This document shows, in pieces, positions 1-16,736 of a stretch of 64,000 nucleotides of DNA (within the stretch, counting starts at the first letter, position 1; the number at the start of each line of letters is the position of its first letter). The DNA is taken from contig NZ_JAIQDG010000012.1 of NCBI RefSeq assembly GCF_020037125.1, forward strand, positions 1 through 64,000. The letters are read 5' to 3'. The notes beneath the pieces are model-generated. The model was not told where the DNA came from, did no database searches, and saw only the letters and a list, made by a program, of their open reading frames with translations. The position numbers were made by a program, and so were the translations under genes. Origin of the DNA: Myxococcus sp. RHSTA-1-4 (GTDB lineage: Bacteria > Myxococcota > Myxococcia > Myxococcales > Myxococcaceae).

Positions 1-321
1 CTCACGGCGGCCACGTGCGGCCAGGGCAAGTCATCCTCCGGCCGGGGCACCAGGTCCGCGTCCAGACTCTCCTGCTCCTCCGGGGGCACCGCAGCGCCTT
101 CAGGCCGCTCGCCCGGAGGCAGGGCATAGGCCCCCTCCAGCCGCAGGCCCGTCATGGCCGAGAGAGCCTCTCCCGCCAACTGCGTCACCTCGGGCACCTC
201 GAGGTACTTCACGCAGGCCTCCATGGCCCCCACCCGACCGCTGAAGCCCAGCGCCCAGAGCGCCTGAGCACGCAACTCGGCGGACTCGAGCAAGCCCACC
301 AGCATGGACGCCTCCGTCTCG
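1..321 (-). pseudogene. TIGR02270-family (HEAT-like) protein, internal fragment
   Basis: Read on the minus strand, one open frame runs leftward off the window edge. It translates to a helical, leucine- and alanine-rich stretch with the pattern RAQALWALGFSGR, followed by AGEALSAMTGLRLEGAY and then an acidic, proline-rich linker. This pattern is characteristic of the myxobacterial TIGR02270 family, whose function is unknown and which is built of HEAT-like helical repeats. The frame is cut on its N-terminal side where the IS66 terminal repeat begins near base 322, so no start codon or N-terminal half is present here. The missing half was not found elsewhere in the window. The family call is from the motif pattern alone and is fairly secure; loss of function is inferred from the truncation. 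Confidence 0.6.
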
Positions 322-372
322 TCGTATCCAACCGGTCCTGCCATGCAGTGGCGGTGAACGAGGTGCCGCAGA

Positions 373-756
373 GTGCGCGGCATGATGACGACCAGCCTGG
401 CAGTGACGACGAAGACGGAGCCCGCGTGGTTGGTAGCCGCGCGGCAGCCGCGGTGGACACCGGAGGTGGCCGCGGAGGTGATGCGCGCGTGGAAGGCGGA
501 GGGAGGGACGCAGTCGGCGTTCATGCGCCGGTATGGGTTGCCGCGCGAGCGGCTGCGCTTCTGGACGAAGCGGGGTGAGGAGAAGGCGGAGGCGAAGCGC
601 GCGCCAGGCTTCGTGCCGGTGGAGGTGGCGTCGGCGGCGGTGCGCGAGGAGGCGGTGGTGGAGGTGGGCGGGGTGAGGGTGAGGGTGGACGGCGGCGCCA
701 GTCAGGAGTTGGTAACGCGGGTGCTGTGGGCGGTGAAAGAGGTGCAGGGGTGCTGA
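373..756 (+). CDS. tnpA: IS66-family accessory protein TnpA
   Basis: A protein of up to 127 residues with the usual TnpA layout of IS66 elements. An N-terminal helix-turn-helix-like segment (RAWKAEGGTQSAFMRRYGLP, then RLRFWTKR) is followed by a basic linker and a C-terminal beta-rich part ending in LVTRVLWAVKEVQGC. TnpA helps IS66 transposition together with TnpB and TnpC. It overlaps the start of tnpB by a few bases, as in complete elements. The exact start is uncertain, because the nearby ATG at residue 4 or 5 is equally plausible. The partner genes are truncated or absent, so the protein is probably non-functional here. Confidence 0.75.
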   Translation: MRGMMTTSLAVTTKTEPAWLVAARQPRWTPEVAAEVMRAWKAEGGTQSAFMRRYGLPRERLRFWTKRGEEKAEAKRAPGFVPVEVASAAVREEAVVEVGGVRVRVDGGASQELVTRVLWAVKEVQGC

Positions 757-802
757 GGCTGCCGGAGGGGGTGCGAATCTGGGTGGCGACGGCGCCGTGC
801 GA
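750..802 (+). pseudogene. tnpB: IS66 tnpB, 5' fragment
   Basis: A GTG at 750 starts the sequence LRLPEGVRIWVATAPCD, which is the N-terminus of IS66 TnpB (compare the same sequence in the inverted copy near 5545). Similarity ends after about 17 codons, where unrelated DNA carrying the 3' end of the NERD-helicase gene begins. It marks a deletion or recombination breakpoint. Confidence 0.65.
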
Positions 803-811
803 CAGAAGCCG

Positions 812-3604
812 TCAATCCTCATCCTCGGCGAGACCGTATTTCACGAGGTGGGCCGAATGAATGCGCATCAAGAACCTGGCTCGGTCGTACCCATCTCGTA
901 GACGGTCAGGAATCGGCTCCCAGGGGTTGGAGTCCTCGCCAAGCGTTGCCACAGATTCGAGCTGCTCTCCGCTAGGGAAGTCAACGTAGCACCAGTCGGA
1001 AGAGAGGACGGAGCCCGCCCCGAGAACCGACCCGTCTCGGTCAACTCGCTCGGTGGAGATCATCCTCTTGGATGACGAGACGCTGGAGACTCGAAACCAC
1101 CTTCCTCCAATGCTGACGAACTCGCCGACCCGCACGTTCATGGGCGGGCGATTCTCAAACGCTTCCTCCGCCGCAGTGAGCGCCTCCCAGAAGGTCTTCC
1201 CATCGACCCGCACGTCGTGCTTACTGATCATCGGAACTAGTCCTTCGCTGCCGTACACCGCACCGTCATATGCCTTCGGGTGAAGGCGCTTGAGCTCGGC
1301 GATGAAAGGCGGGAGCACCGAATCCCAGAGGCGGCTGTTAAAAACGTGGACCTTCTTCTCGGGAGCGGTAGCCATTGGTTCGAGCTCCATCGTCTTTGGA
1401 GGCAGCCTCTTCTGGAGATCCGGTAGGTGTCCCGCCGCGCGGGCGACCAGGCAGATCTCCCGGACCTTCGTCCCAAACCTCTCCCACCGGCTCTCGCCCG
1501 CACCCTTCACCCGAAGGAACTCCTCTCGGGAGATCGGAAGTGCGGTGGCGATGGCCAGGAGGGTTGCGTCGTTGAAGATGATGTAGGGCGGGACGTCGAG
1601 GCTTGAGGCCAGCTCACGGCGCCAACTCTTCAGCTCGGACAGCGCCAGCTCGCTGTGGCTGCTGGGGAGGACGTTGGTGACTGGCGCGACGTCACGCTCG
1701 GGGAGCCGGGCGGCGTGCGCGGCGAGGAAGTCGGAGTAGCGGCCGTCGCCGGTGTCGATCACGATGAGGTTGTGGCGGGCGCGGGTGATGGCGGTGTAGA
1801 CGAGCTCGTCCGAGGTGAAGGCTTCCTCGTGAGGTTCCGTGATCTCGCCGAGGATGAGGATGATGGTGTGGCCCTCCCAGCCCTTGAAGGAATGGATGGT
1901 GGAGAGCTTGACGGTGCCGGGGTTCATCCTGAAGTGGTGCTTGCTGGCTCTGCGGATGGTCTGGATGTCGAGCCAGAATTCCTCCGTCGCTTCCCCCAGA
2001 TGCCTGGCGAGTGCGCTGCGCGCTTCGACCGATGCGAGACGGGGGCTCTCTTTCTTGTAGCGATCGGTTTTATTCCCGTGGTGGGCGGCGAGGCGATCTC
2101 GTTCCTCGTTGGTCTCGAACGTGCGCGAGGCCATCTCGCCGGCGTTACGGAAGCCGTCGTAGAGGTCGCGAAGGACGTCGACGAGGGGGGAGACGACGAT
2201 GAGGTCGTTGGGGTGAATTCCGAGCGCAGCTGCCTGCCCCTGGATCAGACCGAAGAGCTCGCCGGCGGTGGCACCGGGGCGGTGGCCGTATGCGATGAAG
2301 GGGGGAGCGTCAAAGAGGTCAGGCTGGACGACGTTGACCTCGTCGTCGATGGCGTACTTGTCGGCGTAGACGGACTTCTGAAAGGCCTGTGCGAGGGCGA
2401 CGAGTTTGGCGTTGAGTCGGAACGAGTCGGTGAGTTCGTTCCAGCGGCCGGGGATGGTGGTGTTGGGGCGGCGCTCCTCGTCTAGCGGCTTGCCGTAGAC
2501 GTTCTGCTTCTCGTCGCCGAAGACCACGAACTCACCGTCCGGGGCGAGGAAGTAGCGCTTGAGAATGCGGAGCCAATTGGTCTCGTAGTCCTGGACCTCG
2601 TCGACAAAGATGGCGGGGTAGCGGGGAGTCCGGTCCTCGACGGACTCGAAGAACTCCACGTCGGAGCAGGTCTCGAGGAACGAGTCGGGATCGACCCTGA
2701 GGTTGAGGTTGTTGGCGGCCGATTTGAAGAACTGGTGGTAGTTGTCGATGTGGAATGCGTCCCAGGAAAAGGAGCGGCGGACCTCACTGATCCGGTCCTT
2801 GATGTAATTGCACAGGGTGATGTTGAAGGTGAGGATGAGAACCTTTTCGTCGGTACGGGCGTGAGCGTGGACGGCGCGTCCGGCCAGGACGTAGGTCTTC
2901 CCGCAACCTGCCACGCCGCGAATCTTCTGCTGAACGCCCGCGCGGCTCTCCACGAGCTCTTTCTGCTTGCCCCGGTAGATAATTGTTTTCCCTTCCTCCT
3001 CGGTGTGTCTGGGGGGCTGGAGGTAGCGACGGAGCGCGCGGTAAGTCGTGCTGTCCCAGGACTTCGAACCTTGGTGGAGATGACAGTCGCGAAGAAGGCT
3101 CCTCCACCGCTTCCTCGTGAGAGAGTCCCTTCCCAAGACATGCGTGTACTGTGGGTTACCACACCGCACGCGCGCGTCAGCCTCCGCGGCGTTGTGGAAG
3201 TAGACCGCCGTCGACACGAGTCTGGCGTTCCCGGAGTTCTCGATCTTCTTCTTCAGGAGCTGCCCGACGTGGAGGTTGAAGAGGTTCCACTTGTACGTCT
3301 CGACCTGGTCGACGGGCGAGCGGATGTGGGTTCCGTCCGAGACCAACTTCCAAGTCTTCGGGTCGACGTCTTTGTACCGAGAGAGGTCCCAGTCCTTGAC
3401 CTCGATAATGAGGACGCCGGCATCGGGGCGGACGAGAACAATGTCCGGGCGGTCTCCGTTGAAAAAGGGCTGGACGTAGAGCTCGTACTCATCGCTGAGC
3501 TCCTCACAGAGGAACGCGACGAGGTGAGCTTCGCCGGGCTCAAGGGGGACCTTGAGCGAGGCGAGCTTCTCCGGGCCAGGGTAGCAGCGGGGCGCGTTGG
3601 TCAT
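812..3604 (-). CDS. NERD nuclease - SF1 (UvrD/Rep-like) helicase - HRDC fusion, candidate defence protein
   Basis: This 930-residue protein has three recognisable parts. Residues about 20-140 look like a NERD domain (nuclease-related, PD-(D/E)XK fold), with D54 and the E68-V-K70 triad in strand context. Residues about 225-640 form an SF1A helicase: Walker A GVAGCGKT (230-237), Walker B FVDEVQD (333-339), motif III GDEKQN, STIHSFKGWEG near 570, and YTAITRARHN near 603. Residues about 650-720 resemble an HRDC nucleic-acid-binding domain. The last 190 residues match nothing I know. A strong GGAGG lies just upstream of the ATG, and the ATG overlaps the stop of an upstream frame as ATGA, so this looks like the second gene of an operon. 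Base composition is visibly less GC-biased than the trp genes. Together with the IS elements on both sides this suggests horizontal transfer. A role in phage or plasmid defence is inference from architecture and context; a repair helicase is the alternative. Confidence 0.75.
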   Translation of the reverse strand: MTNAPRCYPGPEKLASLKVPLEPGEAHLVAFLCEELSDEYELYVQPFFNGDRPDIVLVRPDAGVLIIEVKDWDLSRYKDVDPKTWKLVSDGTHIRSPVDQVETYKWNLFNLHVGQLLKKKIENSGNARLVSTAVYFHNAAEADARVRCGNPQYTHVLGRDSLTRKRWRSLLRDCHLHQGSKSWDSTTYRALRRYLQPPRHTEEEGKTIIYRGKQKELVESRAGVQQKIRGVAGCGKTYVLAGRAVHAHARTDEKVLILTFNITLCNYIKDRISEVRRSFSWDAFHIDNYHQFFKSAANNLNLRVDPDSFLETCSDVEFFESVEDRTPRYPAIFVDEVQDYETNWLRILKRYFLAPDGEFVVFGDEKQNVYGKPLDEERRPNTTIPGRWNELTDSFRLNAKLVALAQAFQKSVYADKYAIDDEVNVVQPDLFDAPPFIAYGHRPGATAGELFGLIQGQAAALGIHPNDLIVVSPLVDVLRDLYDGFRNAGEMASRTFETNEERDRLAAHHGNKTDRYKKESPRLASVEARSALARHLGEATEEFWLDIQTIRRASKHHFRMNPGTVKLSTIHSFKGWEGHTIILILGEITEPHEEAFTSDELVYTAITRARHNLIVIDTGDGRYSDFLAAHAARLPERDVAPVTNVLPSSHSELALSELKSWRRELASSLDVPPYIIFNDATLLAIATALPISREEFLRVKGAGESRWERFGTKVREICLVARAAGHLPDLQKRLPPKTMELEPMATAPEKKVHVFNSRLWDSVLPPFIAELKRLHPKAYDGAVYGSEGLVPMISKHDVRVDGKTFWEALTAAEEAFENRPPMNVRVGEFVSIGGRWFRVSSVSSSKRMISTERVDRDGSVLGAGSVLSSDWCYVDFPSGEQLESVATLGEDSNPWEPIPDRLRDGYDRARFLMRIHSAHLVKYGLAEDED

Positions 3605-3655
3605 GCAGCCTCCGCATCTGCGAGCGATCTCACCTCAGGCTCCTCGTTTCCTCTA
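3601..3655 (-). pseudogene. Tail of a truncated cistron coupled to the NERD helicase
   Basis: On the minus strand a frame ending RGNEEPEVRSLADAEAA stops with a TGA that overlaps the ATG of the NERD helicase as ATGA. Such overlaps mark co-translated operon partners. Upstream this frame runs into the IS630 element, whose left end I place after the TA at 3655-3656, since IS630 elements target TA. Only about 17 codons of the original partner would then remain. The identity of the lost gene cannot be told from this tail. Confidence 0.4.
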
Positions 3656-4768
3656 GTGGAGTGTCCTCGAAGTCCGTCGACATAGTCGCGGAGGATAAAT
3701 AGCTCTCCTGGATGAGGAGACGACCTCCGCGACTCATCCAACTGTCCCAAGAGGATACTGCCCTCTTGGAAGAGTTGGTGCACGACGGCCGCACCGAACA
3801 GCGCGTAGCACGCCGAGCACGCATCCTGCTGGCCATGACCGACCCGGACACCGTCGTGCAGGACCTGGCCGAGCACTTCGGTCTGGACCGAACCAGCATC
3901 TGGAGCCTGTGCCGCCGCTACGAAGCCTGGGGGCCCCTGGCAGTCTGGGATGCCCCTCGCTCTGGCCGCCCACCGCGGCTCTCCCCCCTGCAGCTCGTCG
4001 AAGTTGAGCAACTGGCCTGCTGTGAACCGGCAGGCGTGGGACTCCAGATGACCCACTGGAGTACGCGCTCGCTGGCGCGGGTGGCCCGCGAGTGCGGCAT
4101 CGCGCCTACCTTGGCGCACTCCAAGGTCGCCGTCATCCTCAAGCATGCAGAGTTGCAACCCCACCGCAGCCGTTACTGGAAGACGCCCACGTTGGACGCC
4201 GACTTCCGCAAGAAGGCGGCGGCCGTCCTCTGGTGCTACGAGCGGGCGCAGAACCTCGCCGAGCACGGCGAGGTCGTGCTGTGCGTGGACGAGAAACCCA
4301 ACATCCAGGTTCTTGAGCGCCGCTGTCCCATTCGGTTCGCGCGGCCGGGGCTCATCGAGCGGCGCGAGTTCGAGTACGTGCGCCATGGAACGGTGAACTT
4401 CCTGGCCTCCCTGCTGGTGCATGCGGGCACCATGCGCGGCTGGTGCCTGGAGAAGAACGACGGGGCCTGCCTGCGAGGCGTGCTGCCCCAACTGCTGCAC
4501 CCCTACCGCGAGGCTCGACGCATTCACCTCATCTGGGATGGAGGACCAAGCCATACCGCCCAGGACACCCGTGCGTTCCTTCGCGGCTACCGCAACGTGC
4601 GTCTGCTTGAGACTCCGCCCCATGCCTCCTGGCTCAATCAAGCCGAGTTGCTGCTGCGCGCCTTCGGTGCCCACTACCTGCAGCGCGGCGACTGGAAGAG
4701 CCGCCCCGATTTCGTCGCCCACCTGGAGGCCAGTTGGCCCGAGTATAACCGCCTCTACGCGCACCCCT
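3656..4768 (+). mobile_element. IS630-family element, 3' end missing
   Basis: The element contains one transposase gene and begins somewhere between 3655 and 3711; the exact left end is uncertain because no matching right terminal repeat survives. Its right side is replaced at 4769 by the terminal inverted repeat of the IS66 element, which removes the last codons of the transposase and the right end. The IS66 arrival is therefore later than the IS630 insertion. No TA duplication can be tested because one side is lost. Confidence 0.6.
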
Positions 4769-4845
4769 TCGTATCCGTCCGGTCCTGCCATGTCCTGACA
4801 TGGTGCCGGGAGCAGGGGAGCGTGGCAGGTTGGGGGCGTGAGTGA
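3712..4845 (+). CDS. IS630-family transposase, C-terminus replaced
   Basis: This 377-residue frame has the IS630/Tc1-mariner-type DDE layout. An N-terminal double helix-turn-helix (residues about 10-120, including QDLAEHFGLDRTSIW and WSTRSLARVARECGI) precedes a catalytic domain with D193 (VDEKP), D276 (IWDGGPSH) and E312 (LNQAE). The family usually ends a little after the NRLYAHPF motif. Here that motif is followed at base 4769 by an IS66 terminal repeat, so the last 25 or so residues are unrelated readthrough. The catalytic triad is complete but the element lacks its right end, so it is unlikely to transpose. Confidence 0.8.
   Translation: MRRRPPRLIQLSQEDTALLEELVHDGRTEQRVARRARILLAMTDPDTVVQDLAEHFGLDRTSIWSLCRRYEAWGPLAVWDAPRSGRPPRLSPLQLVEVEQLACCEPAGVGLQMTHWSTRSLARVARECGIAPTLAHSKVAVILKHAELQPHRSRYWKTPTLDADFRKKAAAVLWCYERAQNLAEHGEVVLCVDEKPNIQVLERRCPIRFARPGLIERREFEYVRHGTVNFLASLLVHAGTMRGWCLEKNDGACLRGVLPQLLHPYREARRIHLIWDGGPSHTAQDTRAFLRGYRNVRLLETPPHASWLNQAELLLRAFGAHYLQRGDWKSRPDFVAHLEASWPEYNRLYAHPFVSVRSCHVLTWCREQGSVAGWGRE
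4769..4793 (+). repeat. IS66 terminal inverted repeat, inner end
   Basis: The 25 bases starting TCGTATCCGTCCGGTCCTGC are the exact reverse complement of 5936-5960. This is the junction with the truncated IS630 transposase gene. Confidence 0.85.
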
Positions 4846-4861
4846 CGGCGCGTCGACGAGC

Positions 4862-5330
4862 CTATCGCTGCTGAGCCTGCTGCTGAGCCCACGTCTCGGG
4901 GAGGAGCTCGTCGAGACGGGAGGCCGGGAAGCGGGTGTCGCCGAGCTTGGGCAGCACGTCGCGCAAGGTGGCCCACGGGTCCACGCCCAGCCGGTAGCAG
5001 CTGAGCACGAGGGAGTAGACGTTCGCGGCACGGTGGCCGGCCTCAACGCTGCCCAGGAAGAGCCAGTTCTTCCTGCCCAGGGCAATCATCCGAATCAGCC
5101 GCTCGGCCTCTCCGTTATCCACCGGCACCCGCCCGTCCTCGAGGAAGCGGCCCAGGGGGACGTAGCGGTTTTGCGCGTAGGCAATCGCCTTGCCCAGCGG
5201 CGTTTTCGGAGGCACGTGGGGGGCCCACCGCGCCAGCAGCTCGAAGAGTTCCGCGTAGACGGAGCTCACCGGGCGGCTGCTGCTCGTCTTCCAGCGTGCC
5301 CCTCTCGTCGGCGGCTGTCTCGGGCGTCGT
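4862..5330 (-). pseudogene. tnpC: IS66 transposase tnpC, C-terminal fragment
   Basis: The 135-residue frame 4862-5269 contains the hallmark C-terminal region of IS66 transposases: LARWAPHVPPKTPLGKAIAY, VPVDNGEAERLIRMIALGRK, LFLGSVEAGHRAANVYSLV. A second short frame just upstream (to about 5330) begins MTTPETAADERG and could be the original tnpC start, joined out of frame after a large deletion. Most of the catalytic domain is gone, so it is inactive. Confidence 0.7.
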
Positions 5331-5379
5331 CATGCGCGCCCCATATGCAATGCACCGGGTAGGGCGCGCAACTGAAGAC

Positions 5380-5545
5380 TCAGTGCATGGGCCTGCGCCG
5401 TGCCGCGCACCCGGCCTCCACCAGCGCCAGCAATTCGGCCAGCTGCCGCGCCTCCAGGAGCGCGCTCAACCCGTCGGCTTGCTTGCGCATGTCGCACGGC
5501 GCCGTCGCCACCCAGATTCGCACCCCCTCCGGCAGCCTCAGCACC
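5380..5545 (-). pseudogene. tnpB: IS66 tnpB, shortened
   Basis: The frame starts with a GTG in the end of tnpA and reads LRLPEGVRIWVATAPCDMRK as in IS66 TnpB, then continues for about 35 residues before stopping. Normal TnpB proteins are roughly twice this length and end in a conserved W/Y-rich segment, which is missing. Confidence 0.6.
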
Positions 5546-5909
5546 CCTGCACCTCCTTCACCGCCCACAGCACCCGCGTTACCAACTCCTGACTGGCGCC
5601 GCCGTCCACCCTCACCCTCACCCCGCCCACCTCCACCACCGCCTCCTCGCGCACCGCCGCCGACGCCACCTCCACCGGCACGAAGCCTGGCGCGCGCTTC
5701 GCCTCCGCCTTCTCCTCACCCCGCTTCGTCCAGAAGCGCAGCCGCTCGCGCGGCAACCCATACCGGCGCATGAACGCCGACTGCGTCCCTCCCTCCGCCT
5801 TCCACGCGCGCACCACGTCCGGTGTCCACCGCGGCTGCCGCGCGGCGGCCAACCACGCGGGCTCCGTCTTCGTCGTCACTGCCAGGCTGGTTGTCATCAT
5901 GCCGCGCAC
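5538..5909 (-). CDS. tnpA: IS66-family accessory protein TnpA
   Basis: This 123-residue protein is nearly the same as the TnpA at 373-756. It differs by a four-residue deletion after WTP and a few substitutions, and has the same helix-turn-helix segment and the same C-terminus. It overlaps tnpB. The element has lost most of tnpC, so it has no cognate transposase in this window. Confidence 0.75.
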   Translation of the reverse strand: MRGMMTTSLAVTTKTEPAWLAAARQPRWTPDVVRAWKAEGGTQSAFMRRYGLPRERLRFWTKRGEEKAEAKRAPGFVPVEVASAAVREEAVVEVGGVRVRVDGGASQELVTRVLWAVKEVQGC

Positions 5910-5935
5910 TCTGCGGCGCCTCGTTCATCGCCACC

Positions 5936-5960
5936 ACATGGCAGGACCGGACGGATACGA
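5936..5960 (-). repeat. IS66 terminal inverted repeat, outer end
   Basis: This is an exact reverse complement of 4769-4793, and a version with three mismatches is found at 322-346. The three copies define the ends of the two IS66 remnants. Confidence 0.85.
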
Positions 5961-6049
5961 CGTGGCAGACCCGGTCAAAGGCGAAATACCGTGAGGCAAG
6001 GTCGGCTGCGAGGCTTGCGCTGGGCGGCCGCAATGCGCAGCTACGGTGT

Positions 6050-7297
6050 TCAGCGCCCCAAATCCAACAGCACCGCCTCCGCCGCGCGCCGGCCGGAGCC
6101 CAGGGCCCCATCAATGGACGCATTGTCCCGGTGGTCACCACAGACATACAGACCCGGGGACAGCCGCACCGGGCGGCGCGGAGGCTCCAGCGATTCCGGG
6201 AGCTGCGCGGGCAGTGCGCGGGCAATGACATACGTGCGCAGGTGCCGCCACGCGGACACCGCCGTGCCGAACCATCCCGCCAACTCCTCGCGCACGCGGG
6301 CCTCCACGGCCCCGGCGTCCGGCCACTCCCCCAGCACCGACACGGACACGAGCGACTGTCCCGGGGGCGCGTAGGCCGGAGACACCTCGCTCATCACCGC
6401 CACGTTGTTCACCACGCCCCTCCCCTCCCCGTTCAGCACCAGCCACGGGCCCTGGACGGGCGGCTCCGGCGCGGCGAAGTACAGGCACGTCACCCGGTTC
6501 ATCCGGGGCGCGAGCATCCCGGGCAGCAGCCCCACCGCGCTCAGCGGGTCCGCCGCCACCACCACCGCCTTCGCGCCAATCACCTCGCCGTCCGCCAGCC
6601 GCACGCGGTGGCCCCACACCTCCGACACGGGCGCGCGCCTCCGCAACGTGCCCGAGGGCAGTCCCGCGGCGAGCTGCTCGGGGATGGCGCCCATCCCCCG
6701 CCGCGGCACCACCGTGTCCCCGGTGGCGAACATGCGGAAGACGAACTCCAGGAAGCGGCTCGACGTGGCCAGCTCGCGCTCCAGGAAGATGCCCGCGAAG
6801 AACGGCCGGAGGAACCCCTCCAGCATCCCCTCCGTGAAGCCCAGCTCCTCCAGGTAGCGCGACGAGGCGCGCTGCGGCCGGTGCCACAAATCCTCCAGCT
6901 CGCCGGACACGGAGAGCTGCCGCAGCTCCAGCACCCTCAGCTTGTCCCCGAAGGTGCCCGGCCCGCGAAAGAGGTGCGACAGCGCCACCCCGGGCCGCCT
7001 CAGCGGGTCCGCCACCGTGTGCAACCCGCCGCCTCGCCACACCCTTGCGCCCGGCGTGAACCGGCAAAGGTCAAGTGCCCCGTAGTCCAGCACCCGCCGC
7101 CCCTCCGGGTAGGCGGTCAGGTACACCTGGAAGCCCCGGTCTAGAAGAAACCCCTCATGCGTGTCCGTGCGAACCCGGCCGCCAGGTGCGTCCCCGCCCT
7201 CCAGGAGCAGCACCTTCACCCTCGATGCAGCGAGGGCCCGCGCGCACGCCAGCCCGGCGAGCCCCGCGCCCACCACAATCACATCCGGGTTCGACAC
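6050..7297 (-). CDS. NAD(P)/FAD-dependent amine-oxidase-like oxidoreductase
   Basis: This 415-residue protein has an N-terminal Rossmann dinucleotide motif ([17 protein letters not shown]), then the GG-doublet motif of amine oxidases and phytoene-desaturase-like enzymes ([12 protein letters not shown]). The C-terminal FAD motif [20 protein letters not shown] is typical of the same superfamily. I chose the GTG at 7297, which has GGGAG nine bases upstream and gives the expected start [11 protein letters not shown]. The longer frame upstream reads through the aroF promoter region and is not supported. The substrate cannot be told; carotenoid- or protoporphyrinogen-oxidase-like chemistry is possible but unproven. 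It is divergently placed from aroF, about 200 bases away. Confidence 0.75.
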
Positions 7298-7449
7298 GCG
7301 CGTTTGCTCCCACACATCCCACCAGCACCGGAAACCCCGCCACCCTGGCTTGATAAGCCTCCCGGGCACAAGGGAGACTGCCGGGCGGTTCACGGGCAAC
7401 GGACACTTGGTGCTGAACCGAGTCAGCGTGCCCGTTAGCCTGGATACCT

Positions 7450-7471
7450 GGTGCCGGCCTTCCCCGGCACC
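7450..7471 (+). promoter_or_regulatory. Perfect hairpin upstream of aroF
   Basis: An 8-bp perfect stem (GGTGCCGG / CCGGCACC, loop CCTTCC) ends 28 bases before the aroF start codon. No T-run follows, so it is not a standard intrinsic terminator. It could be an operator or part of a leader attenuator for the aroF-trp operon. Function is inference. Confidence 0.35.
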
Positions 7472-7499
7472 TTCACTCGGAGAGAGAGCAGGAACCCCC

Positions 7500-8525
7500 A
7501 TGTTGATCGTGATGCGACCCGACGCGACGGCCCAGGACATCGAGCGTGTGAACGACGAGATCCGCCGTCGTGGCTGGCAACCGCACGCGATTCCAGGGGG
7601 CACTCGCACCGCCATCGGCATCACCGGCAACCCGGGCGCGGTGGAGCCGGAGCCCTTCCGCGTGCTGCCCGGCGTCGCGGACGCGGTGCCCATCTCCCAG
7701 CCGTTCAAGCTCGTCAGCCGCGAGGTGAAGCCGGACAACACGACCGTCCAGGTCGGCGGCCTCACCCTCGGCGGCGCGGCGTTCCACGTCATCGCCGGCC
7801 CCTGCTCCGTGGAGTCGCGCGAGCAGATTCTCTCCACCGCCGAGGCGGTGAAGAAGGCGGGCGCCACCATGCTGCGCGGCGGAGCCTTCAAGCCCCGCAC
7901 CAGCCCCTACGAGTTCCAGGGCCTCAAGGATGACGGCCTGGCGCTGCTGGCCGAGGCGCGCAAGGAGACGGGCCTGCTCGTCACCACCGAGGTGAAGGAC
8001 ACCGCGACGCTGGACGCGGTGTGCGACGCCACGGACATCCTCCAGGTTGGCGCGCGCAACATGCAGAACTTCAGCCTCCTGGAGGCGGTGGGCGAGCGCC
8101 GCAAGCCGGTGCTGCTCAAGCGCGGCATCAGCGCCACCATCAAGGAGCTGCTGATGGCGGCCGAGTACATCGTCGCCCGCGGCAACACCCAGGTCATCCT
8201 CTGCGAGCGCGGCATCCGCACCTTCGAGACGATGACGCGCAACACGTTGGATTTGAACGCGGTGCCGATGCTCAAGCAGCTCACGCACCTGCCCGTGTTC
8301 GTGGACCCGTCGCACGGCATCGGCGTGCGCAAGGCGGTGCCGGCGATGATGCGCGCGGCCACGGCGGTGGGCGCCGACGGCATCATCGTCGAGGTGCACC
8401 CCAATCCCCCGTGCGCGAAGTCGGACGGCTTCCAGTCACTGGACTTCCCGGAGTTCGAGAAGGCCATGAACGAGGTTCGCGCCATCGCCCAGGCGATGGG
8501 CCGCGAAGTCGTGAGGCTGGGGTAG
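7500..8525 (+). CDS. aroF: 3-deoxy-7-phosphoheptulonate synthase (DAHP synthase, type I-beta)
   Basis: This 341-residue enzyme catalyses the first step of the shikimate pathway, condensing phosphoenolpyruvate with erythrose 4-phosphate. The first 70 residues form a ferredoxin-like regulatory domain, as in the I-beta enzymes related to KDO8P synthase. The barrel follows with [41 protein letters not shown] and the metal ligands in VDPSHG. The start is the ATG at 7500, with an AG-rich ribosome-binding site (AGAGAGAGCAGG). The longer upstream frame is not conserved. It is followed three bases later by trpD, making it the lead gene of a tryptophan operon and coupling entry into aromatic synthesis to tryptophan production. 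Confidence 0.92.
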
Positions 8526-8528
8526 GCC

Positions 8529-9545
8529 ATGACGCTCAAGGAAGCGCTGGGCAAGGTGGTGGGCCGGCGCGACCTCACCCGCGAGGAGATGGCCCGAATC
8601 ATGGGCCTGATGCTCGCGGGAGAGGCTTCGCCTGCCCAGGTGGGCGCGCTGGCGACGGCGCTCAAGATGAAGGGTGAGACGGAGGACGAAATCCTCGGCG
8701 CGGCGGAGGCCATGCGGGCCTGCGCGGCGAAGCTCTCGCCCAGGGCGGAGGTGGTGCTCGACACCTGCGGTACGGGGGGTGACGGGGCGCACACCTTCAA
8801 CATCTCCACCGCGGTGGCCTTCGTGGCCGCCGGGGCGGGGGTGACGGTGGCCAAGCACGGCAACCGCGCCGTCTCCAGCCGCTGCGGAAGCGCGGACGTG
8901 CTGGCGGCGCTGGGCGTGTCCATGGAGCGCCCGCACGAGCACGTCGCGAGGGACATCGACGTGCACGGGGTGGGCTTCCTCTTCGCGCCCTCGCACCACA
9001 GCGCCATGCGGCACGTGGCGCAGGCGCGGCGGGACATGGGCTTCCACAGCGTGTTCAACCTGCTGGGCCCGCTGACCAACCCGGCCGGCGCGCGCTACCA
9101 GCTGCTGGGCACCTTCGACGGCAACCGCGTGGAGCAGACGGCGCGGGTGCTCGGGCGCCTGGGCAGCCGCCGCGCGTGGGTGGTGCACGGCGATGACGGG
9201 CTGGACGAAATCTCCCCCTGCGCACCGACGCGGGTGGCGGAGCTGCGCGAGGACGGCACCGTCCACACCTTCACGGTGACGCCGCGGGACGCGGGGCTGG
9301 AGGTGGTGCCTCGCGAAGCCATCGCCGGCGGCGACGCGGAGGAGAACGCGAAGCGGCTGCGCGAGCTGCTGGCGGGTGAGCGCTCCGGGCTGCGCACGGC
9401 GGTGGTGCTCAACGCGGCGGCGGCGCTGGTGGTGGTGGGCCTGGCGGCGGACCTGCGCGAGGGCGTGCGGAAGGCGGAGCACGCCATCGACTCGGGCCAG
9501 GCCGCGCGCAAGCTGGACGCGCTCATCCACGGGGGCGCGTCATGA
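8529..9545 (+). CDS. trpD: Anthranilate phosphoribosyltransferase
   Basis: This 338-residue enzyme transfers a phosphoribosyl group from PRPP to anthranilate, the second tryptophan-specific step. The PRPP-binding loop CGTGGDGAHTFNIST is complete, followed by VAKHGNRAVSSRCGSADVL. An N-terminal helical domain (REEMARIMGLMLAGEASPAQ) is as in the family. The length is normal for a stand-alone TrpD not fused to TrpG. Its stop overlaps the trpC start as ATGA, indicating translational coupling. Confidence 0.95.
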   Translation: MTLKEALGKVVGRRDLTREEMARIMGLMLAGEASPAQVGALATALKMKGETEDEILGAAEAMRACAAKLSPRAEVVLDTCGTGGDGAHTFNISTAVAFVAAGAGVTVAKHGNRAVSSRCGSADVLAALGVSMERPHEHVARDIDVHGVGFLFAPSHHSAMRHVAQARRDMGFHSVFNLLGPLTNPAGARYQLLGTFDGNRVEQTARVLGRLGSRRAWVVHGDDGLDEISPCAPTRVAELREDGTVHTFTVTPRDAGLEVVPREAIAGGDAEENAKRLRELLAGERSGLRTAVVLNAAAALVVVGLAADLREGVRKAEHAIDSGQAARKLDALIHGGAS

Positions 9546-10354
9546 GCGCGCCGCTGCGGGAGGGTGTGGCGGCCCCCGGGACGCTGGACCTCATCATGGC
9601 GCGCAAGCGCCGGGAGCTGGCCGCGCGTCCGCCCATGGCGCCGCGCCCGCGTCCGGCGCCTCGGGACTTCGCCGGGGCCCTGGTGGCGAAGGTGCCGGGG
9701 CGGCCGGTGAGCGTCATCGCGGAGGTGAAGCGCAAGAGCCCCTCGGGCGGCGCGTTTCCGCACGCGGACGTGGTGGCGGTGGCCCGGGCCTACGAGGCCG
9801 CGGGGGCCAGCGCCATCAGCGTGCTGACGGACGGGCCGGACTTCGGCGGCAGCCTGGAGGACCTGGTGGCGGTGCGGGCGGCGGTGTCCGTGCCGGTGCT
9901 GCGCAAGGACTTCCTGGTGGCCGCGCGCGAGGTGGAGGAGAGCGCGCTGTGGGGCGCGGACGCGGTGCTGCTCATCGCGGACGCGCTGGAGGACGGCGAG
10001 CTGCGGGAGATGGTGGCCGCGGCGCGCGAGATACGGGTGGCCGCGCTGGTGGAGGCGCACACGGAGGCGCACGCCGAGCGCGCGCTGGCCGCGGGCGCGG
10101 AGCTGGTGGGCATCAACAACCGCGACCTCGCCACGCTGAAGACGGACACGGGCACGGCGCTGCGGGTGATGCCGAAGCTGCGCTCCCGCGCCCGGGCGCT
10201 GGTGGCGGAGAGCGGGCTCAAGTCGCTGGCGGACCTGCTGGCGGCGCGCGAGGCGGGCGCGGACTCGGTGCTGGTGGGCGAGTCCCTGCTGCGCGAGGCG
10301 GAGCCCGGACGGGCGCTGAGGCGGCTGCTCGGCGCGGAGGGCCCCACGACGTGA
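9542..10354 (+). CDS. trpC: Indole-3-glycerol phosphate synthase
   Basis: This 270-residue TIM-barrel enzyme closes the indole ring by decarboxylating CdRP. The typical AEVKRKSPSGG, VPVLRKDFLV and INNRDLATLKTD motifs and the C-terminal phosphate-binding GADSVLVGESLLRE are all present. It is coupled by overlapping codons to trpD upstream and trpF downstream. It is a stand-alone protein, not fused to TrpF as in E. coli. Confidence 0.95.
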   Translation: MSAPLREGVAAPGTLDLIMARKRRELAARPPMAPRPRPAPRDFAGALVAKVPGRPVSVIAEVKRKSPSGGAFPHADVVAVARAYEAAGASAISVLTDGPDFGGSLEDLVAVRAAVSVPVLRKDFLVAAREVEESALWGADAVLLIADALEDGELREMVAAAREIRVAALVEAHTEAHAERALAAGAELVGINNRDLATLKTDTGTALRVMPKLRSRARALVAESGLKSLADLLAAREAGADSVLVGESLLREAEPGRALRRLLGAEGPTT

Positions 10355-10989
10355 GCGTCCGGGTGAAGGTGTGCGGAGTCACCCGCCTGGAGGACGCGAA
10401 GGCGGCGTGGGAGGCGGGCGCGGACGCGCTCGGCCTCAACTTCTACGAGAAGTCCCCCCGCTGCGTGGACGTGGCCACGGCCGCCGCGCTCGCCGCCACC
10501 CGGCCTCCGCTGGGCTCGGTGGTGGGCGTGTTCGTCAACGCGTCCCCGGAGGACATCCGGGCGAAGGTGCGGGCGTGCGGCCTCACGGCGGTGCAGCTCC
10601 ATGGAGACGAGCCGCCGGAGGCCTGCTCGAACTACGGCGTGCCCGTCATCAAGGCCCTGCGGGTGCGAGGCCCCGAGGACGTGGCGCGCGCCCGCGAGTA
10701 TGTGGGCGTGGGAGACGTGGCGGGGCTGCTGCTGGACGGGGCGGCTCCAGGGTATGGCGGCGGTGGTGTCGGCTTCGACTGGTCGCTGGTGGCGCAGCTC
10801 TCCGGGAGCGGCGTGCCCGTGCTGGTGGCGGGAGGACTGAAGCCGTCCAACGTGGCCGAGGCCGTGCGTGCGACGCGGCCATACGGCGTGGATGTGGCCA
10901 GCGGGGTGGAGTCGGCCCCCGGCATCAAGGACCTGGACGCGGTGCGCGCCTTCGTGCGGCTCGCGAAGTCCATCAACCTCTGGGAGTAA
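10351..10989 (+). CDS. trpF: Phosphoribosylanthranilate isomerase
   Basis: This 212-residue TIM-barrel enzyme isomerises phosphoribosylanthranilate to CdRP. It has VKVCGVTRLEDA with the catalytic cysteine near the N-terminus, the LGLNFYEKSPR segment, VQLHGDE, LLLDG and VASGVES phosphate-binding motifs. It starts at a GTG overlapping the trpC stop (GTGA). A much longer frame open upstream overlaps trpC and is not real. Confidence 0.93.
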   Translation: MSVRVKVCGVTRLEDAKAAWEAGADALGLNFYEKSPRCVDVATAAALAATRPPLGSVVGVFVNASPEDIRAKVRACGLTAVQLHGDEPPEACSNYGVPVIKALRVRGPEDVARAREYVGVGDVAGLLLDGAAPGYGGGGVGFDWSLVAQLSGSGVPVLVAGGLKPSNVAEAVRATRPYGVDVASGVESAPGIKDLDAVRAFVRLAKSINLWE

Positions 10990-10992
10990 GAG

Positions 10993-12198
10993 ATGACCAC
11001 GGAGACTACCGTCGGACGCTTCGGGCGCTACGGCGGGCGCTACGTGCCGGAGACGCTGGTGCCGGCGCTGCTGGAGCTGGAAGAGGCCTACGCGAAGGCG
11101 AGCGCGGACCCGTCCTTCGGTGAGGAAGTCGCGCGGGTGCTGAAGGAGTTCGTGGGACGGCCCACGACGCTGACGCCCGCCCGGCGGCTCACCGAGGCCT
11201 GGGGTGGCGCGGAGGTGTGGCTCAAGCGCGAAGATTTGGCGCACACGGGCGCGCACAAAATCAACAACACCGTGGGCCAGGTGCTGCTGGCGAAGCGGAT
11301 GGGGAAGAAGCGCATCATCGCGGAGACGGGCGCGGGCCAGCACGGCGTGGCCACGGCCACCGCGTGCGCCCTCTTCGGCCTGCCCTGCGAGGTGTACATG
11401 GGCGCGCTGGACGTGGAGCGGCAGGCGCTCAACGTCTTCCGCATGCGCGCGCTGGGCGCGGTGGTGAAGCCGGTGGAGTCCGGCTCGCGCACGCTGAAGG
11501 ACGCGATGAACGAGGCCATGCGCACCTGGGTGTCGCAGGTGGCGGACACGCACTACGTCATCGGCAGCGCGGCGGGGCCGCACCCGTACCCGACGATTGT
11601 GCGCGACTTCCAGTCCGTCATCGGCAAGGAGCTGAGGACGCAGGCGCTGGCGGCCTTCGGGAAGCTGCCGGACGCCATCATCGCGTGCGTGGGCGGCGGC
11701 TCGAATGCGATTGGCGCGCTGCACCCGTTCATCGGTGACAAGGGCGTGCGGCTGGTGGGCGTGGAGGCGGGAGGGCATGGCCTGGACTCGGGGCAGCACG
11801 GCGCGTCGCTGACGCTGGGGACGGAGGGCGTGCTGCACGGCTCGCGCTCGCTGGTGCTCCAGGACGCGGACGGCCAGATTCAGGAGGCGCACAGCATCTC
11901 CGCGGGCCTGGACTACCCGGGCGTGGGGCCGGAGCTGGCGTACCTGGCGAAGACGGGGCGGATGGAGGTGCGCACCGCCACGGACGACGAGGCGCTGGCG
12001 GCCTTCTACGAGGTGGCGCGGATGGAGGGCATCCTCCCGGCGCTGGAGACGTCCCACGCCTTCGCGCGCGGCCGGGAGCTGGCTCGCGAGCTGGGCAGGG
12101 GAAAGCACCTGGTCATCAACTGCTCGGGCCGCGGCGACAAGGACGTGGCGACGATTTCCGCGCGGGGCGTGCCGCCGCCGGTGGGGGTGAAGGCGTGA
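10993..12198 (+). CDS. trpB: Tryptophan synthase beta subunit
   Basis: This 401-residue PLP enzyme joins indole and serine. The PLP lysine lies in [13 protein letters not shown], and the phosphate-binding loop [10 protein letters not shown] and the [10 protein letters not shown]-terminal segment are all intact. The length matches the canonical TrpB1 form. A GGAGTAAGAG ribosome-binding site precedes the ATG. The final codons overlap the GTG of trpA, consistent with equal expression of the alpha2-beta2 complex. Confidence 0.95.
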
Positions 12199-12986
12199 GC
12201 GGAGAGATTGCACAGGCGTTCGCGAAGGCGAAGGCGCGCGGCGAGGGCGTGCTGGTGGCGTATGCCATGGCGGGCGACCCGGACCTGCCGCGCTCGGTGG
12301 ACGTGTTCGCCGCGCTGGTGGAGGGTGGCGCGGACATCGTGGAGATTGGCGTGGCGTTCAGCGACCCCATCGCCGACGGGCCCGTCATCCAGGGCGCGTC
12401 GGAGCGGGCGCTCAAGGCCGGCTCCACGCTGAAGCGCGTGCTGGATGAAGTCGTCCCCGAGGTGCGCCGGCGCTGCCCCCAGACGCCGCTGGTCATCATG
12501 ACGTACGTCAACGTCGTCATGGCCATGGGCGAGGAGCGCTTCGCGAAGCTGGCGCGTGAGCGCGGCGTGTCGGGCGCGATTCTGCCGGACCTGCCGCCCG
12601 AGGAGAGCGCGGACCTGCGGGCCACGTTCGACGCGGCGGGGCTGGACTTGATTCCGCTGTGCGCGCCCACGACGCCGCCGGCCCGGGCGGAGGCGATTGC
12701 CCGGGATGCCCGGGGCTTCGTCTACTGCGTGTCCGTGGCGGGTGTGACGGGCATGCGGGCGGAATTGCCGCCGGACCTGTCACAGCGGCTGGACCTGGTG
12801 CGCAGGGCCTCGCCGGTGCCGGTGGTGGCGGGCTTCGGCATCTCCACCGAGGAGCAGGCACGCACGCTGGCCGCGCACGCGGACGGTGTCGTGGTGGGCA
12901 GCGCGCTGGTGCGCGCGGCGCACGCGGACGGGCCGCAGGCGGCGAAAGCCCTCTGCGCCAACATCAAGCGCGGTCTGAAGCGCTGA
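12195..12986 (+). CDS. trpA: Tryptophan synthase alpha subunit
   Basis: This 263-residue TIM-barrel subunit cleaves indole-3-glycerol phosphate and channels indole to TrpB. The [17 protein letters not shown] active-site motif carries the catalytic glutamate and aspartate, and [18 protein letters not shown] and GFGIST follow. It starts at a GTG overlapping trpB (GTGA). It is the last gene of the aroF-trp operon, with a hairpin immediately downstream. Confidence 0.95.
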
Positions 12987-12994
12987 GCGGCGGT

Positions 12995-13020
12995 GGGAGG
13001 GCGGGGCTCCCTGCCCTCCC
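12995..13020 (+). terminator. Likely terminator after trpA
   Basis: An 8-bp GC-only inverted repeat (GGGAGGGC / GCCCTCCC, 10-base loop) begins nine bases after the trpA stop. The tract after it is pyrimidine-rich (TCCTCCCC) rather than a pure T-run, so this is a weak to moderate intrinsic terminator call. Confidence 0.5.
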
Positions 13021-13107
13021 TCCTCCCCGGTGCCGTCACGGAGAGTGTCCACCCTCGGGCGCTCGCGGCCAGGAAGTCCAGGGCCCTCCACTCCGCCGTC
13101 TGGCACG

Positions 13108-13713
13108 ATGCGCGGCATGAAGACCCGAGGACACCAACTGGTGCTCGTCCGGCACGGTGAGACGGATTGGAGCCGCAGTGGCCAGCACACGGGCCGCACG
13201 GACATTCCCCTGCTCGAAGACGGCCGGAGGATGGGAGAGCTGCTTGGAGCGCCGCTGCGTGCGTGGCGCTTCGCCGAGGTGTGGACGAGCCCGCTGAGCC
13301 GCGCCGCAGAGACGTGCGCGCTGGCCGGCTACGGCGGCGTGGCGCGGCGGCGGCCGGACCTCATGGAGTGGGACTACGGTGAATACGAAGGCCGTAGGGG
13401 GGACGACATCCGCGCGAGCCGCCCCGGCTGGTCCCTGTGGAAGGACGGAGCACCCAACGGCGAGACGGCGGCGGACGTGGGCGCCCGCGTGGACCGCGTC
13501 ATCGCGGACGTCCGGGCGGTGAAGGGAGACGTGCTCGTCTTCGCCCACGGCCACCTGCTGCGGGTGCTGGCTGCGCGGTGGCTGGGACTGCCGCCGGACA
13601 ACGGGCGCCTCTTCATGCTCGGCACCGCCTCCATCAGCGTCCTCAGCCTCGATGGAGACGGCACCCAGCCCGTCGTCGTCACCTGGAACGACACCACGCA
13701 CCTGCGCGGATGA
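13108..13713 (+). CDS. Histidine phosphatase (phosphoglycerate-mutase-like)
   Basis: This protein of about 201 residues has the branch-1 histidine phosphatase signature LVRHGETDW near the N-terminus, the second catalytic histidine in VFAHGHLLRVL, and the acid residue in MEWDYGEYEG. Related proteins dephosphorylate small phosphate esters such as phosphoglycerates, alpha-ribazole phosphate or pentose phosphates; the substrate is not clear here. Either ATG 13108 or ATG 13117 could be the start. Its stop lies three bases from the converging trpG stop. Confidence 0.8.
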   Translation: MRGMKTRGHQLVLVRHGETDWSRSGQHTGRTDIPLLEDGRRMGELLGAPLRAWRFAEVWTSPLSRAAETCALAGYGGVARRRPDLMEWDYGEYEGRRGDDIRASRPGWSLWKDGAPNGETAADVGARVDRVIADVRAVKGDVLVFAHGHLLRVLAARWLGLPPDNGRLFMLGTASISVLSLDGDGTQPVVVTWNDTTHLRG

Positions 13714-13716
13714 GCG

Positions 13717-14276
13717 CTACAGCCGCCCCTCCAGGAAGTTGCGCACCAGCTTCGGTCCCTCGGGGGTGAGCACGCTCTCCGGGTGGAACTGGAAGCCCAC
13801 CACGGGCCGCGAGCGGTGACGCAGCGCCATGATGAGGCCATCCTGGCTCCACGCGGTGGCCTCCAGGTCCGCGGGCAGCGACGACGCCTCCACCACCAGC
13901 GAGTGGTAGCGCGCCGCCTGGAAGCCCTGGCTCACCCCGGTGAACACGCCCGTCTCTCCATGCCGGATGTGCGCCGCCTTGCCGTGCACCGGCTCCGGTG
14001 CGCGAATCACCTTGCCGCCGAAGGCCGCGCCGATGGACTGGTGCCCCAGGCACACGCCCAGCACCGGCACGCGGGACTGGGCAATCGCCGCCACGCTGAC
14101 GCCGGCCTCGTGCGGCGTGCACGGGCCCGGCGAAATCACCAGGTGCGAGGCCCCCGTCGCCGCCACGCCCGCGGCATCCAGGTCGTCGTTGCGCACCACC
14201 TTCACCTCGGCGCCCAGCGTGTACAGCAACTGCACGAGGTTGAAGGTGAACGAGTCGTAGTTGTCGATGACGAGAA

Positions 14277-14280
<4 letters not shown>
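13717..14280 (-). CDS. trpG: Anthranilate synthase, glutamine amidotransferase subunit
   Basis: This 187-residue class I amidotransferase supplies ammonia from glutamine to TrpE. It has the ILVIDNYDSFTFNL start, the oxyanion segment ISPGPCTPHEAG, the nucleophile cysteine in GVCLGHQSIG and the catalytic His-Glu pair in QFHPESVLTPEG. It starts at GTG 14280, overlapping the trpE stop (GTGA). It may also serve 4-amino-4-deoxychorismate synthase, as some TrpG proteins do, but nothing here tests that. Confidence 0.93.
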
Positions 14281-15776
<1,496 letters not shown>

Positions 15777-15791
15777 GATTGACTCTGCCCC

Positions 15792-16736
15792 CTAGGGCTT
15801 CGTTTCCGCCACCGCGGAACCCGCGGGCTTCTCTTCGGAGAACACGCCGTCCGACAGCTTGTACCGGGTGCGCTCCGTCGTCTTCACTTCCTTGCCGGAC
15901 TCGTCCTCCTCTGTGTTCGTCCGAACCACCGTGAGGCCCTTCTGCTTCGGCTGGAACGAAACCTGGTACGAGGAGTGGGCGGGCGGGTCCGCCAGGCCGC
16001 CCAGTTCCAGGGCAATCTTCGCCTTGCCGAGCACGCCCTTCTTGTTGCCCGGCACCGTGTAGCTCACGTACGCGGTGCTGAAGTCTCCACACGCCTCGGG
16101 CGTGGAGTCCACCTGCACCAGGGGGAGGCCCGCCGTCTTCGCGGCGACGAGCCGCGCCTTCGCCGGGCCGCCATTCACGCTCAGGTAGGCCTGACCCGCG
16201 GGGGTGACGTCGATGCTGCTGACACGGCGGGGCGGCTTCACGTTGGGCTCCAGGACGCGGACGCGAATCTTGAAGTCCGCGCTCATCACCACCGTGGCCA
16301 CCTCCTGCTCGCCGTCCCCGTCGAAGTCCGCCTCGAAGCGGAGGGGCGTGAGCGTGTTGCCGAAGAGCCAGCCCCGGACGGGCGCGTCGTCCCCGGTGTC
16401 CGGGGTGCCCCTGGTGTCCATGTACTCCACCCGGTACCAGTGGTTGACGTACTCGCCCACCTTCTGGCGGTCCCTGCCGCGCTCCATCACCCGCACGGCG
16501 GCGCCCAGCGGCAGGACGGTGACGACCTTCGCGTCCGCGGCGGGGGACTCGCGGAGGTTCGCCTCATCCACCCCGACGAAGTGTTTCGCCTGCTTGCCGG
16601 TCGGCTCCCACACGGTGAAGTCGTAACGCTCCAGCGCGGGCTTCGTTCCCTCCGCCTCGGAAGCGGGGGCGGTGTAGTGGATGGAGGCGCCGGGCGGCTG
16701 GGAGAGCACCAGGGACAGCAGCAGGGCAGGCGTCAT
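15792..16736 (-). CDS. Secreted SH3-domain protein
   Basis: This 314-residue protein starts MTPALLLSLVLSQPPGA, which looks like a short signal peptide. Residues about 50-130 form a bacterial SH3-like domain (VDEANLRESPAADAKVVTVL, then WYRVEY and a GWLFGNTL strand). A segment with EADFDGDGEQEVATVV resembles an acidic calcium-binding or FG-GAP-type loop. The function is unknown; SH3 domains of this kind often bind peptidoglycan or other cell-wall polymers. I start it at ATG 16736; the very long frame beyond is antisense to the exonuclease gene. It is probably the lead gene of an operon with trpE and trpG, which is unexpected. Confidence 0.7.
   Translation of the reverse strand: MTPALLLSLVLSQPPGASIHYTAPASEAEGTKPALERYDFTVWEPTGKQAKHFVGVDEANLRESPAADAKVVTVLPLGAAVRVMERGRDRQKVGEYVNHWYRVEYMDTRGTPDTGDDAPVRGWLFGNTLTPLRFEADFDGDGEQEVATVVMSADFKIRVRVLEPNVKPPRRVSSIDVTPAGQAYLSVNGGPAKARLVAAKTAGLPLVQVDSTPEACGDFSTAYVSYTVPGNKKGVLGKAKIALELGGLADPPAHSSYQVSFQPKQKGLTVVRTNTEEDESGKEVKTTERTRYKLSDGVFSEEKPAGSAVAETKP

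What the first reader, a model, noticed from the sequence alone, without database searches (positions are those of the whole stretch)
812..3655. NERD-SF1 helicase-HRDC gene is the survivor of a broken two-gene cassette
The sequence shows a 930-residue NERD plus helicase plus HRDC fusion whose ATG overlaps the stop of a preceding frame (ATGA). That preceding frame is cut by an IS630 element, so the cassette originally had at least one more gene. NERD domains are PD-(D/E)XK-like and fused to helicases they resemble single-protein nuclease-helicase immunity (for example Nhi-type logic). The flanking IS debris and lower GC fit a mobile defence island. The last 190 residues match no domain I know and could be a specificity or sensor module.
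Basis: partly seen in the sequence, partly recalled or inferred. Interest (0 to 1): 0.78.

Follow-up and report, generated by a model that had tools for sequence, protein, structure and literature searches.

The report
Nuclease-helicase fused to RecQ's tail
A myxobacterial genome carries an intact gene for a DNA-cutting, DNA-unwinding protein of a family that lives on mobile elements and in anti-virus gene neighbourhoods, and this copy alone has gained the DNA-binding tail of the bacterium's own RecQ repair helicase plus a further module; the claimed lost partner gene has no support.

Summary
The 930-aa minus-strand ORF (812-3604) is real. It encodes NERD nuclease + UvrD-like SF1 helicase + HRDC + ~190 aa, with all catalytic motifs intact. 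IS remnants flank it: IS66 ends 8 bp after the stop, IS630 starts ~50 bp before the ATG. The two-gene-cassette reading is not supported. The 'preceding frame' has only 17 non-IS codons, an open length expected by chance 47-83% of the time. The ATG has its own Shine-Dalgarno, and of ten homologues none shows a recurring upstream partner. NERD+helicase alone is a known kind: all 11 copies match PADLOC's candidate 'NERD+UvrD' model, often on plasmids beside Druantia, CBASS, CRISPR-III or candidate defence genes. What is unusual is the tail. The 74%-identical relative in the same family stops at residue 635. Residues 646-735 are the C-terminus of a Myxococcaceae RecQ (57-69% identity within most of the family, mostly 31-49% outside; nested there in a tree). 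Residues ~741-930 are related to stand-alone small proteins, one sitting upstream of IteA/IteS-like anti-phage genes. Best reading: a single-gene, probably anti-MGE, nuclease-helicase retargeted by capturing RecQ's HRDC. Function is inferred, and the gene may be silent because IS630 lies where its promoter should be.

The parts
812..3604 (-). 930-aa NERD + SF1 helicase + HRDC + C-terminal module gene
   Evidence: ORF; domains; catalytic and helicase motifs located; dN/dS ~0.27 against the G121 homologue over residues 1-635
3239..3535 (-). NERD nuclease domain (residues 24-122), PD-(D/E)XK residues D54, E68, K70 present
   Evidence: Pfam PF08378 E 1.2e-8; D54 invariant and E68/K70 nearly invariant over 11 homologues
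1745..2998 (-). UvrD-like SF1 helicase core (about residues 203-620), motifs Q, I, Ia, II, III, IV, V, VI intact
   Evidence: Pfam; motif positions; alignment
1400..1669 (-). HRDC region (residues 646-735) homologous to the C-terminal end of Myxococcaceae RecQ
   Evidence: Pfam HRDC E 1.2e-16; alignment with 14 RecQ tails; identities; tree
815..1384 (-). C-terminal module (residues 741-930): helical part, predicted strands, final helix; relatives are stand-alone ORFs
   Evidence: no Pfam or PDB match; relatives in G034 and G057; weak AF2 model, mean pLDDT 47
3601..3653 (-). 17-codon stretch with ATGA overlap and GGAGG Shine-Dalgarno; no evidence that it is the end of a gene
3653..4770 (+). IS630-family element, left end ~50 bp upstream of the ATG, right end cut by the IS66 remnant
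   Evidence: NCBIfam transpos_IS630 E 3e-45; boundaries from copies in the family
4769..5960 (-). degraded IS66-type element abutting the IS630; ends share a 25-bp inverted sequence
   Evidence: DDE_Tnp_IS66; inverted repeat I4
313..804 (+). second IS66 fragment, inverted copy of 5490-5969, ends 8 bp downstream of the stop codon
   Evidence: inverted repeats I1 and I2

Best explanation
The gene encodes a single-protein nuclease-helicase of the NERD+UvrD kind that has been extended at its C-terminus by two acquired modules: the HRDC-bearing tail of a Myxococcaceae RecQ helicase and a module that otherwise exists as a small separate protein. Likely working (inferred): the SF1 helicase loads on and moves along single-stranded DNA; the HRDC (in RecQ a structure-selective DNA-binding domain) and the C-terminal module steer it to forks, flaps or protein-coated intermediates of invading replicating DNA; the NERD PD-(D/E)XK site cuts the DNA there. 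It works as one gene without a co-transcribed partner and protects against phages or plasmids. Shown here: the architecture, intact catalytic motifs, purifying selection on NERD+helicase, the origin of the HRDC, and defence-type neighbourhoods of several distant homologues. Inferred: DNA cutting, direction of movement, target choice, anti-phage role.
For: Domains and motifs. Constraint: dN 0.18, dS 0.65 against the G121 homologue. All 11 homologues match PADLOC 'NERD+UvrD' and all 10 others lack HRDC, ending at or within about 40 residues of the helicase end, one after a short unrelated tail. G121, ~74% identical, ends at the residue equivalent to 635. The HRDC part is 57-69% identical to RecQ tails of most of the family and mostly 31-49% outside it; it nests in the family behind a 99/100 branch and is homologous up to RecQ's own C-terminus. 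Module relatives are stand-alone ORFs, one upstream of IteA/IteS-like genes. Homologues sit on plasmids near DruE and csm genes, 4TM effector and Ppl-like, PDC-S06, SNF2/ZacB-like proteins.
Against: The neighbours of this copy are IS debris and core genes, not defence genes. No experiment on any member of this family was found. Defence neighbourhoods were checked for a handful of plasmid homologues, without a statistical control. The C-terminal fold is unknown (pLDDT 45-47). IS630 sits ~50 bp upstream of the ATG and may have removed the promoter.
Confidence: 0.6

Rival explanations
1. A stranded, transcriptionally silent or decaying remnant: an intact reading frame whose promoter was removed by IS630 and whose 3' end was touched by the IS66 junction.
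For: IS630 begins ~50 bp before the ATG; IS66 ends 8 bp after the stop; the last six codons lie in a 19-nt inverted repeat of an internal sequence, unexpected by codon shuffling; C-terminal GC3 is lower (0.72); the gene is absent from all other genomes of the phylum that were searched.
Against: 930 codons without a stop and all motifs intact; a good Shine-Dalgarno (GGAGG) remains; the IS630 end may supply a promoter.
Confidence: 0.3
2. A DNA-repair helicase-nuclease (RecQ-like accessory) rather than a defence protein.
For: The HRDC comes from RecQ.
Against: Patchy occurrence: full-length only in this genome and the NERD+helicase part at E<=1e-40 in 3 of 195 genomes of the phylum; homologues on plasmids and beside defence genes.
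Confidence: 0.15
3. One reading: second gene of a two-gene cassette whose first gene was cut by IS630.
For: ATGA overlap; a 17-codon open frame up to the IS630 end.
Against: The open frame is expected by chance in 47-83% of cases. No recurring upstream gene: divergent gene in G121, IS3 and IS1 transposases upstream in two plasmid copies, unrelated genes or gaps in others; in the Bacteroidales locus the gene just upstream is a DUF1848 protein, found nowhere else here.
Confidence: 0.06

Closest known systems
PADLOC candidate protein C3a187 (NERD+UvrD, PDLC01087)
   Same: Same order and extent of NERD and SF1 helicase domains; E 4e-54 over residues 14-623; all ten homologues match too
   Different: The model ends where the helicase ends; no HRDC and no C-terminal module
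NERD+UvrD homologue in genome G121, same family (L023)
   Same: ~74% identical over residues 7-635
   Different: Ends at the equivalent of residue 635; lies alone beside other genes; no HRDC, no module
Nhi / Nhi-like single-gene nuclease-helicase immunity
   Same: One protein with nuclease and helicase; a review lists NERD (PF08378) for Nhi-like (PMC10952713); Nhi is described as nicking and unwinding DNA, with phage SSB as trigger (PMC12904381)
RTasNERD-Hel of DRT systems and GajB of Gabija (PADLOC)
   Same: Related SF1 helicase and, for RTasNERD-Hel, the NERD association
   Different: Much weaker match (E 5e-19 and weaker); no reverse transcriptase or GajA gene next to this gene in the window
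RecQ of Myxococcaceae
   Same: C-terminal HRDC region 57-69% identical in most of the family
   Different: RecQ is an SF2 helicase without a NERD domain; only the tail is shared

Membership tests
PADLOC C3a187 (NERD+UvrD) | NERD domain followed by UvrD-like helicase in one chain | tested here: met
   E 4.2e-54, profile positions 8-549 of 559
PADLOC C3a187 (NERD+UvrD) | proven anti-phage function | not testable with these tools
   The model is listed without a function beyond NERD+UvrD; no experimental paper found in the library
Nhi (nuclease-helicase immunity) | sequence homology to S. epidermidis Nhi over nuclease and helicase | not tested
   No Nhi sequence was at hand; no model named Nhi among the 25 best PADLOC matches
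Nhi (nuclease-helicase immunity) | single protein carrying both nuclease and helicase | tested here: met
Gabija | GajA OLD-family nuclease gene next to the UvrD helicase | tested here: not met
   Neighbours are IS66 and IS630 remnants; the contig ends at window base 1, so one side is only partly visible
DRT RT-associated NERD-helicase | adjacent reverse transcriptase | tested here: not met
   No other intact gene between 813 and 6049 except the IS630 transposase; one side ends at the contig end
two-gene cassette with an upstream partner (reader) | conserved upstream overlapping gene in homologues | tested here: not met
RecQ | SF2 DEAH helicase core with RQC and HRDC | tested here: not met
   Helicase core is SF1 UvrD-type; only the HRDC tail is shared

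The most novel reading that the evidence does not exclude
A mobile nuclease-helicase changed its targeting by capturing the structure-sensing tail of the host's own RecQ, plus a module otherwise found as a small protein in defence islands; RecQ's HRDC thereby became the sensor of an immune enzyme that attacks replication or recombination intermediates of invaders.
Probability: 0.3. Interest if true: 0.6.

Novelty: new variant of a known kind. Interest (0 to 1): 0.42.

Why it matters
Nuclease-helicase immune proteins must tell foreign DNA from their own, and how the single-gene ones do so is mostly open. A pair of close relatives, one without extra domains (G121) and one with a RecQ-derived HRDC and an extra module, is a ready-made comparison to ask whether adding a DNA-structure-reading domain changes what such an enzyme attacks. 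It is also an example of a defence-type protein being built from host repair parts.

Tried and rejected
Lost partner gene: rejected (17-codon frame uninformative, no recurring partner). Full-length homologues (HRDC plus module) elsewhere: none in 195 genomes of the phylum, plasmids, phages, viral contigs or the pattern scan of genome contigs; the last two only find close relatives. C-terminal module: no Pfam or PDB match; single-sequence AF2 models too weak for a fold search (pLDDT 47.0 and 44.6), so none was run; the weak match to a Marinomonas EAL-domain protein (39% over 62 residues, E 0.01) was judged chance. Viral relatives found with the family profile are 23-27% identical and were not followed. 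Literature: no paper on a NERD-UvrD-HRDC protein was found. Empty-site comparison: the four sister genomes compared break synteny exactly at 6049 and have varied genes beyond, so the inserted unit could not be delimited, also because the contig ends at base 1.

Full report
What was checked. The finding describes a 930-residue NERD-helicase-HRDC protein. The ORF exists on the minus strand at 812-3604. Pfam finds NERD (24-122), UvrD-helicase/AAA_19/UvrD_C_2 (about 227-616) and HRDC (655-714) above their cut-offs. The NERD catalytic residues (D54, E68, K70) and SF1 motifs I-VI are present and conserved among homologues.

Surroundings. The window starts at the first base of contig C33 of an 11.2-Mb genome. 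Going right: bases 3-323 (-) encode part of a TIGR02270 protein; 313-804 is an IS66 fragment, the inverted copy of 5490-5969; then the gene; then an IS630 element from ~3653 to 4770, with left end defined by 74% identical copies in other genomes of the family; then a degraded IS66 element 4769-5960; then an oxidoreductase gene (6050-~7370) and aro/trp genes (named from their translations) that are syntenic in sister genomes, where conservation stops exactly at 6049. The non-IS island is thus essentially this one gene, 8 bp from IS66 on one side and ~50 bp from IS630 on the other.

The supposed first gene. Only 17 codons lie between the ATGA and the IS630 end. A frame of this length is open in 47% of composition-matched random sequences and in 78-83% of 17-codon stretches of the window. 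GGAGG five bases before the ATG explains initiation by itself. Homologues: G121 has a divergent neighbour upstream; two plasmid copies have IS3 or IS1 transposase genes upstream; the others have divergent genes, or same-strand neighbours at a distance; a Bacteroidales homologue is preceded by DUF1848 and 2OG-Fe(II) oxygenase genes. There is no recurring partner. The cassette reading is not supported.

What the protein is. Homologues (about 570-670 aa; one of 882 aa with a different N-terminus and a degenerate NERD region) end at or within about 40 residues of the helicase end, and none of the ten others shows an HRDC. All 11 match PADLOC's NERD+UvrD candidate C3a187. The name may denote a type III CRISPR accessory cluster; that is a guess, though one homologue does lie beside csm genes. 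Several lie on plasmids next to defence genes: DruE and type III-A csm genes (Deinococcus), CBASS 4TM effector and Ppl-like protein (Citrobacter), PDC-S06 (Vibrio), SNF2/ZacB-like proteins (Pantoea). This was a look at a few loci, not an enrichment test. The nearest relative, in the same family (G121), is 74% identical in aligned positions with dN 0.18 and dS 0.65, i.e. purifying selection, and ends at the residue matching 635.

Where the tail comes from. Residues ~646-735 align with the last ~90 residues of RecQ from the same family. Identity is 57-69% to RecQ of most of the family's genomes (down to 34-52% in a few divergent members) and mostly 31-49% to HRDC regions of other families. In a tree of 25 HRDC regions the fusion lies inside the family, which is separated from the outgroup by a 99/100 branch, next to G145 and G152 (support 86, moderate) rather than with its own genome's RecQ. 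So the tail was taken from a RecQ of the family, not recently from the resident gene: dS to the own RecQ is 1.05. Calling the family Myxococcaceae rests on general knowledge of myxobacterial genomes, since the genomes searched carry group codes only. Residues ~741-930 have relatives that are separate small ORFs: 216 aa in G034, ~166 aa in G057, and a more distant one in G038. The G057 copy lies ~1.1 kb upstream of IteA- and IteS-like anti-phage genes. AF2 on the single sequence suggests helices, four strands and a final helix, with low confidence; no fold is claimed.

Mechanism. The most likely reading is a one-gene nuclease-helicase that attacks invading DNA, with the HRDC and the end module choosing the substrate. 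HRDC as a structure-selective DNA-binding domain is established knowledge for RecQ; its role here is inferred. Related single-gene nuclease-helicases are reported to respond to phage SSB: Nhi (PMC12904381) and Hna (PMC13381803). That is a lead, not a test.

Limits. Expression is unknown, and IS630 may have removed the promoter. The contig end hides one side. Genome collections were searched within one phylum, plus plasmids, phages and viral contigs, so absence of other full-length copies is only for those. Nhi homology was not tested.

Noticed in passing
815-833 and 1843-1861: 19-nt exact inverted repeat inside the gene; the longest in 200 codon-shuffled versions was 15 nt. The first arm encodes the last six residues next to the IS66 junction, so the 3' end may have been rewritten when the IS66 fragment joined.
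   Followed up: partly
3-323 (-): Fragment of a TIGR02270 family protein (E 5.7e-20) interrupted by the IS66 fragment at the contig end.
   Followed up: partly
L044 (G057:C1243) 5455-15972: Island with an RNase J-like protein, a DNA polymerase III alpha-like ORF, the stand-alone relative of the C-terminal module, an excisionase-like HTH ORF, IteA- and IteS-like genes and a large helicase.
   Followed up: partly
L024 (G000:C90) 9375-11390 (-): A second NERD+UvrD gene in the same genome, 32% identical, without HRDC, with a transposase nearby.
   Followed up: partly
L007 7062-9710 (+): Bacteroidales homologue with a ~300-aa N-terminal extension and a degenerate NERD catalytic motif, in a locus with an HsdR-like gene and an integrase.
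   Followed up: no
G034:C7:360380-360634: A second HRDC-like region (38% identity) in a 532-aa frame of a relative's genome; not identified.
   Followed up: no
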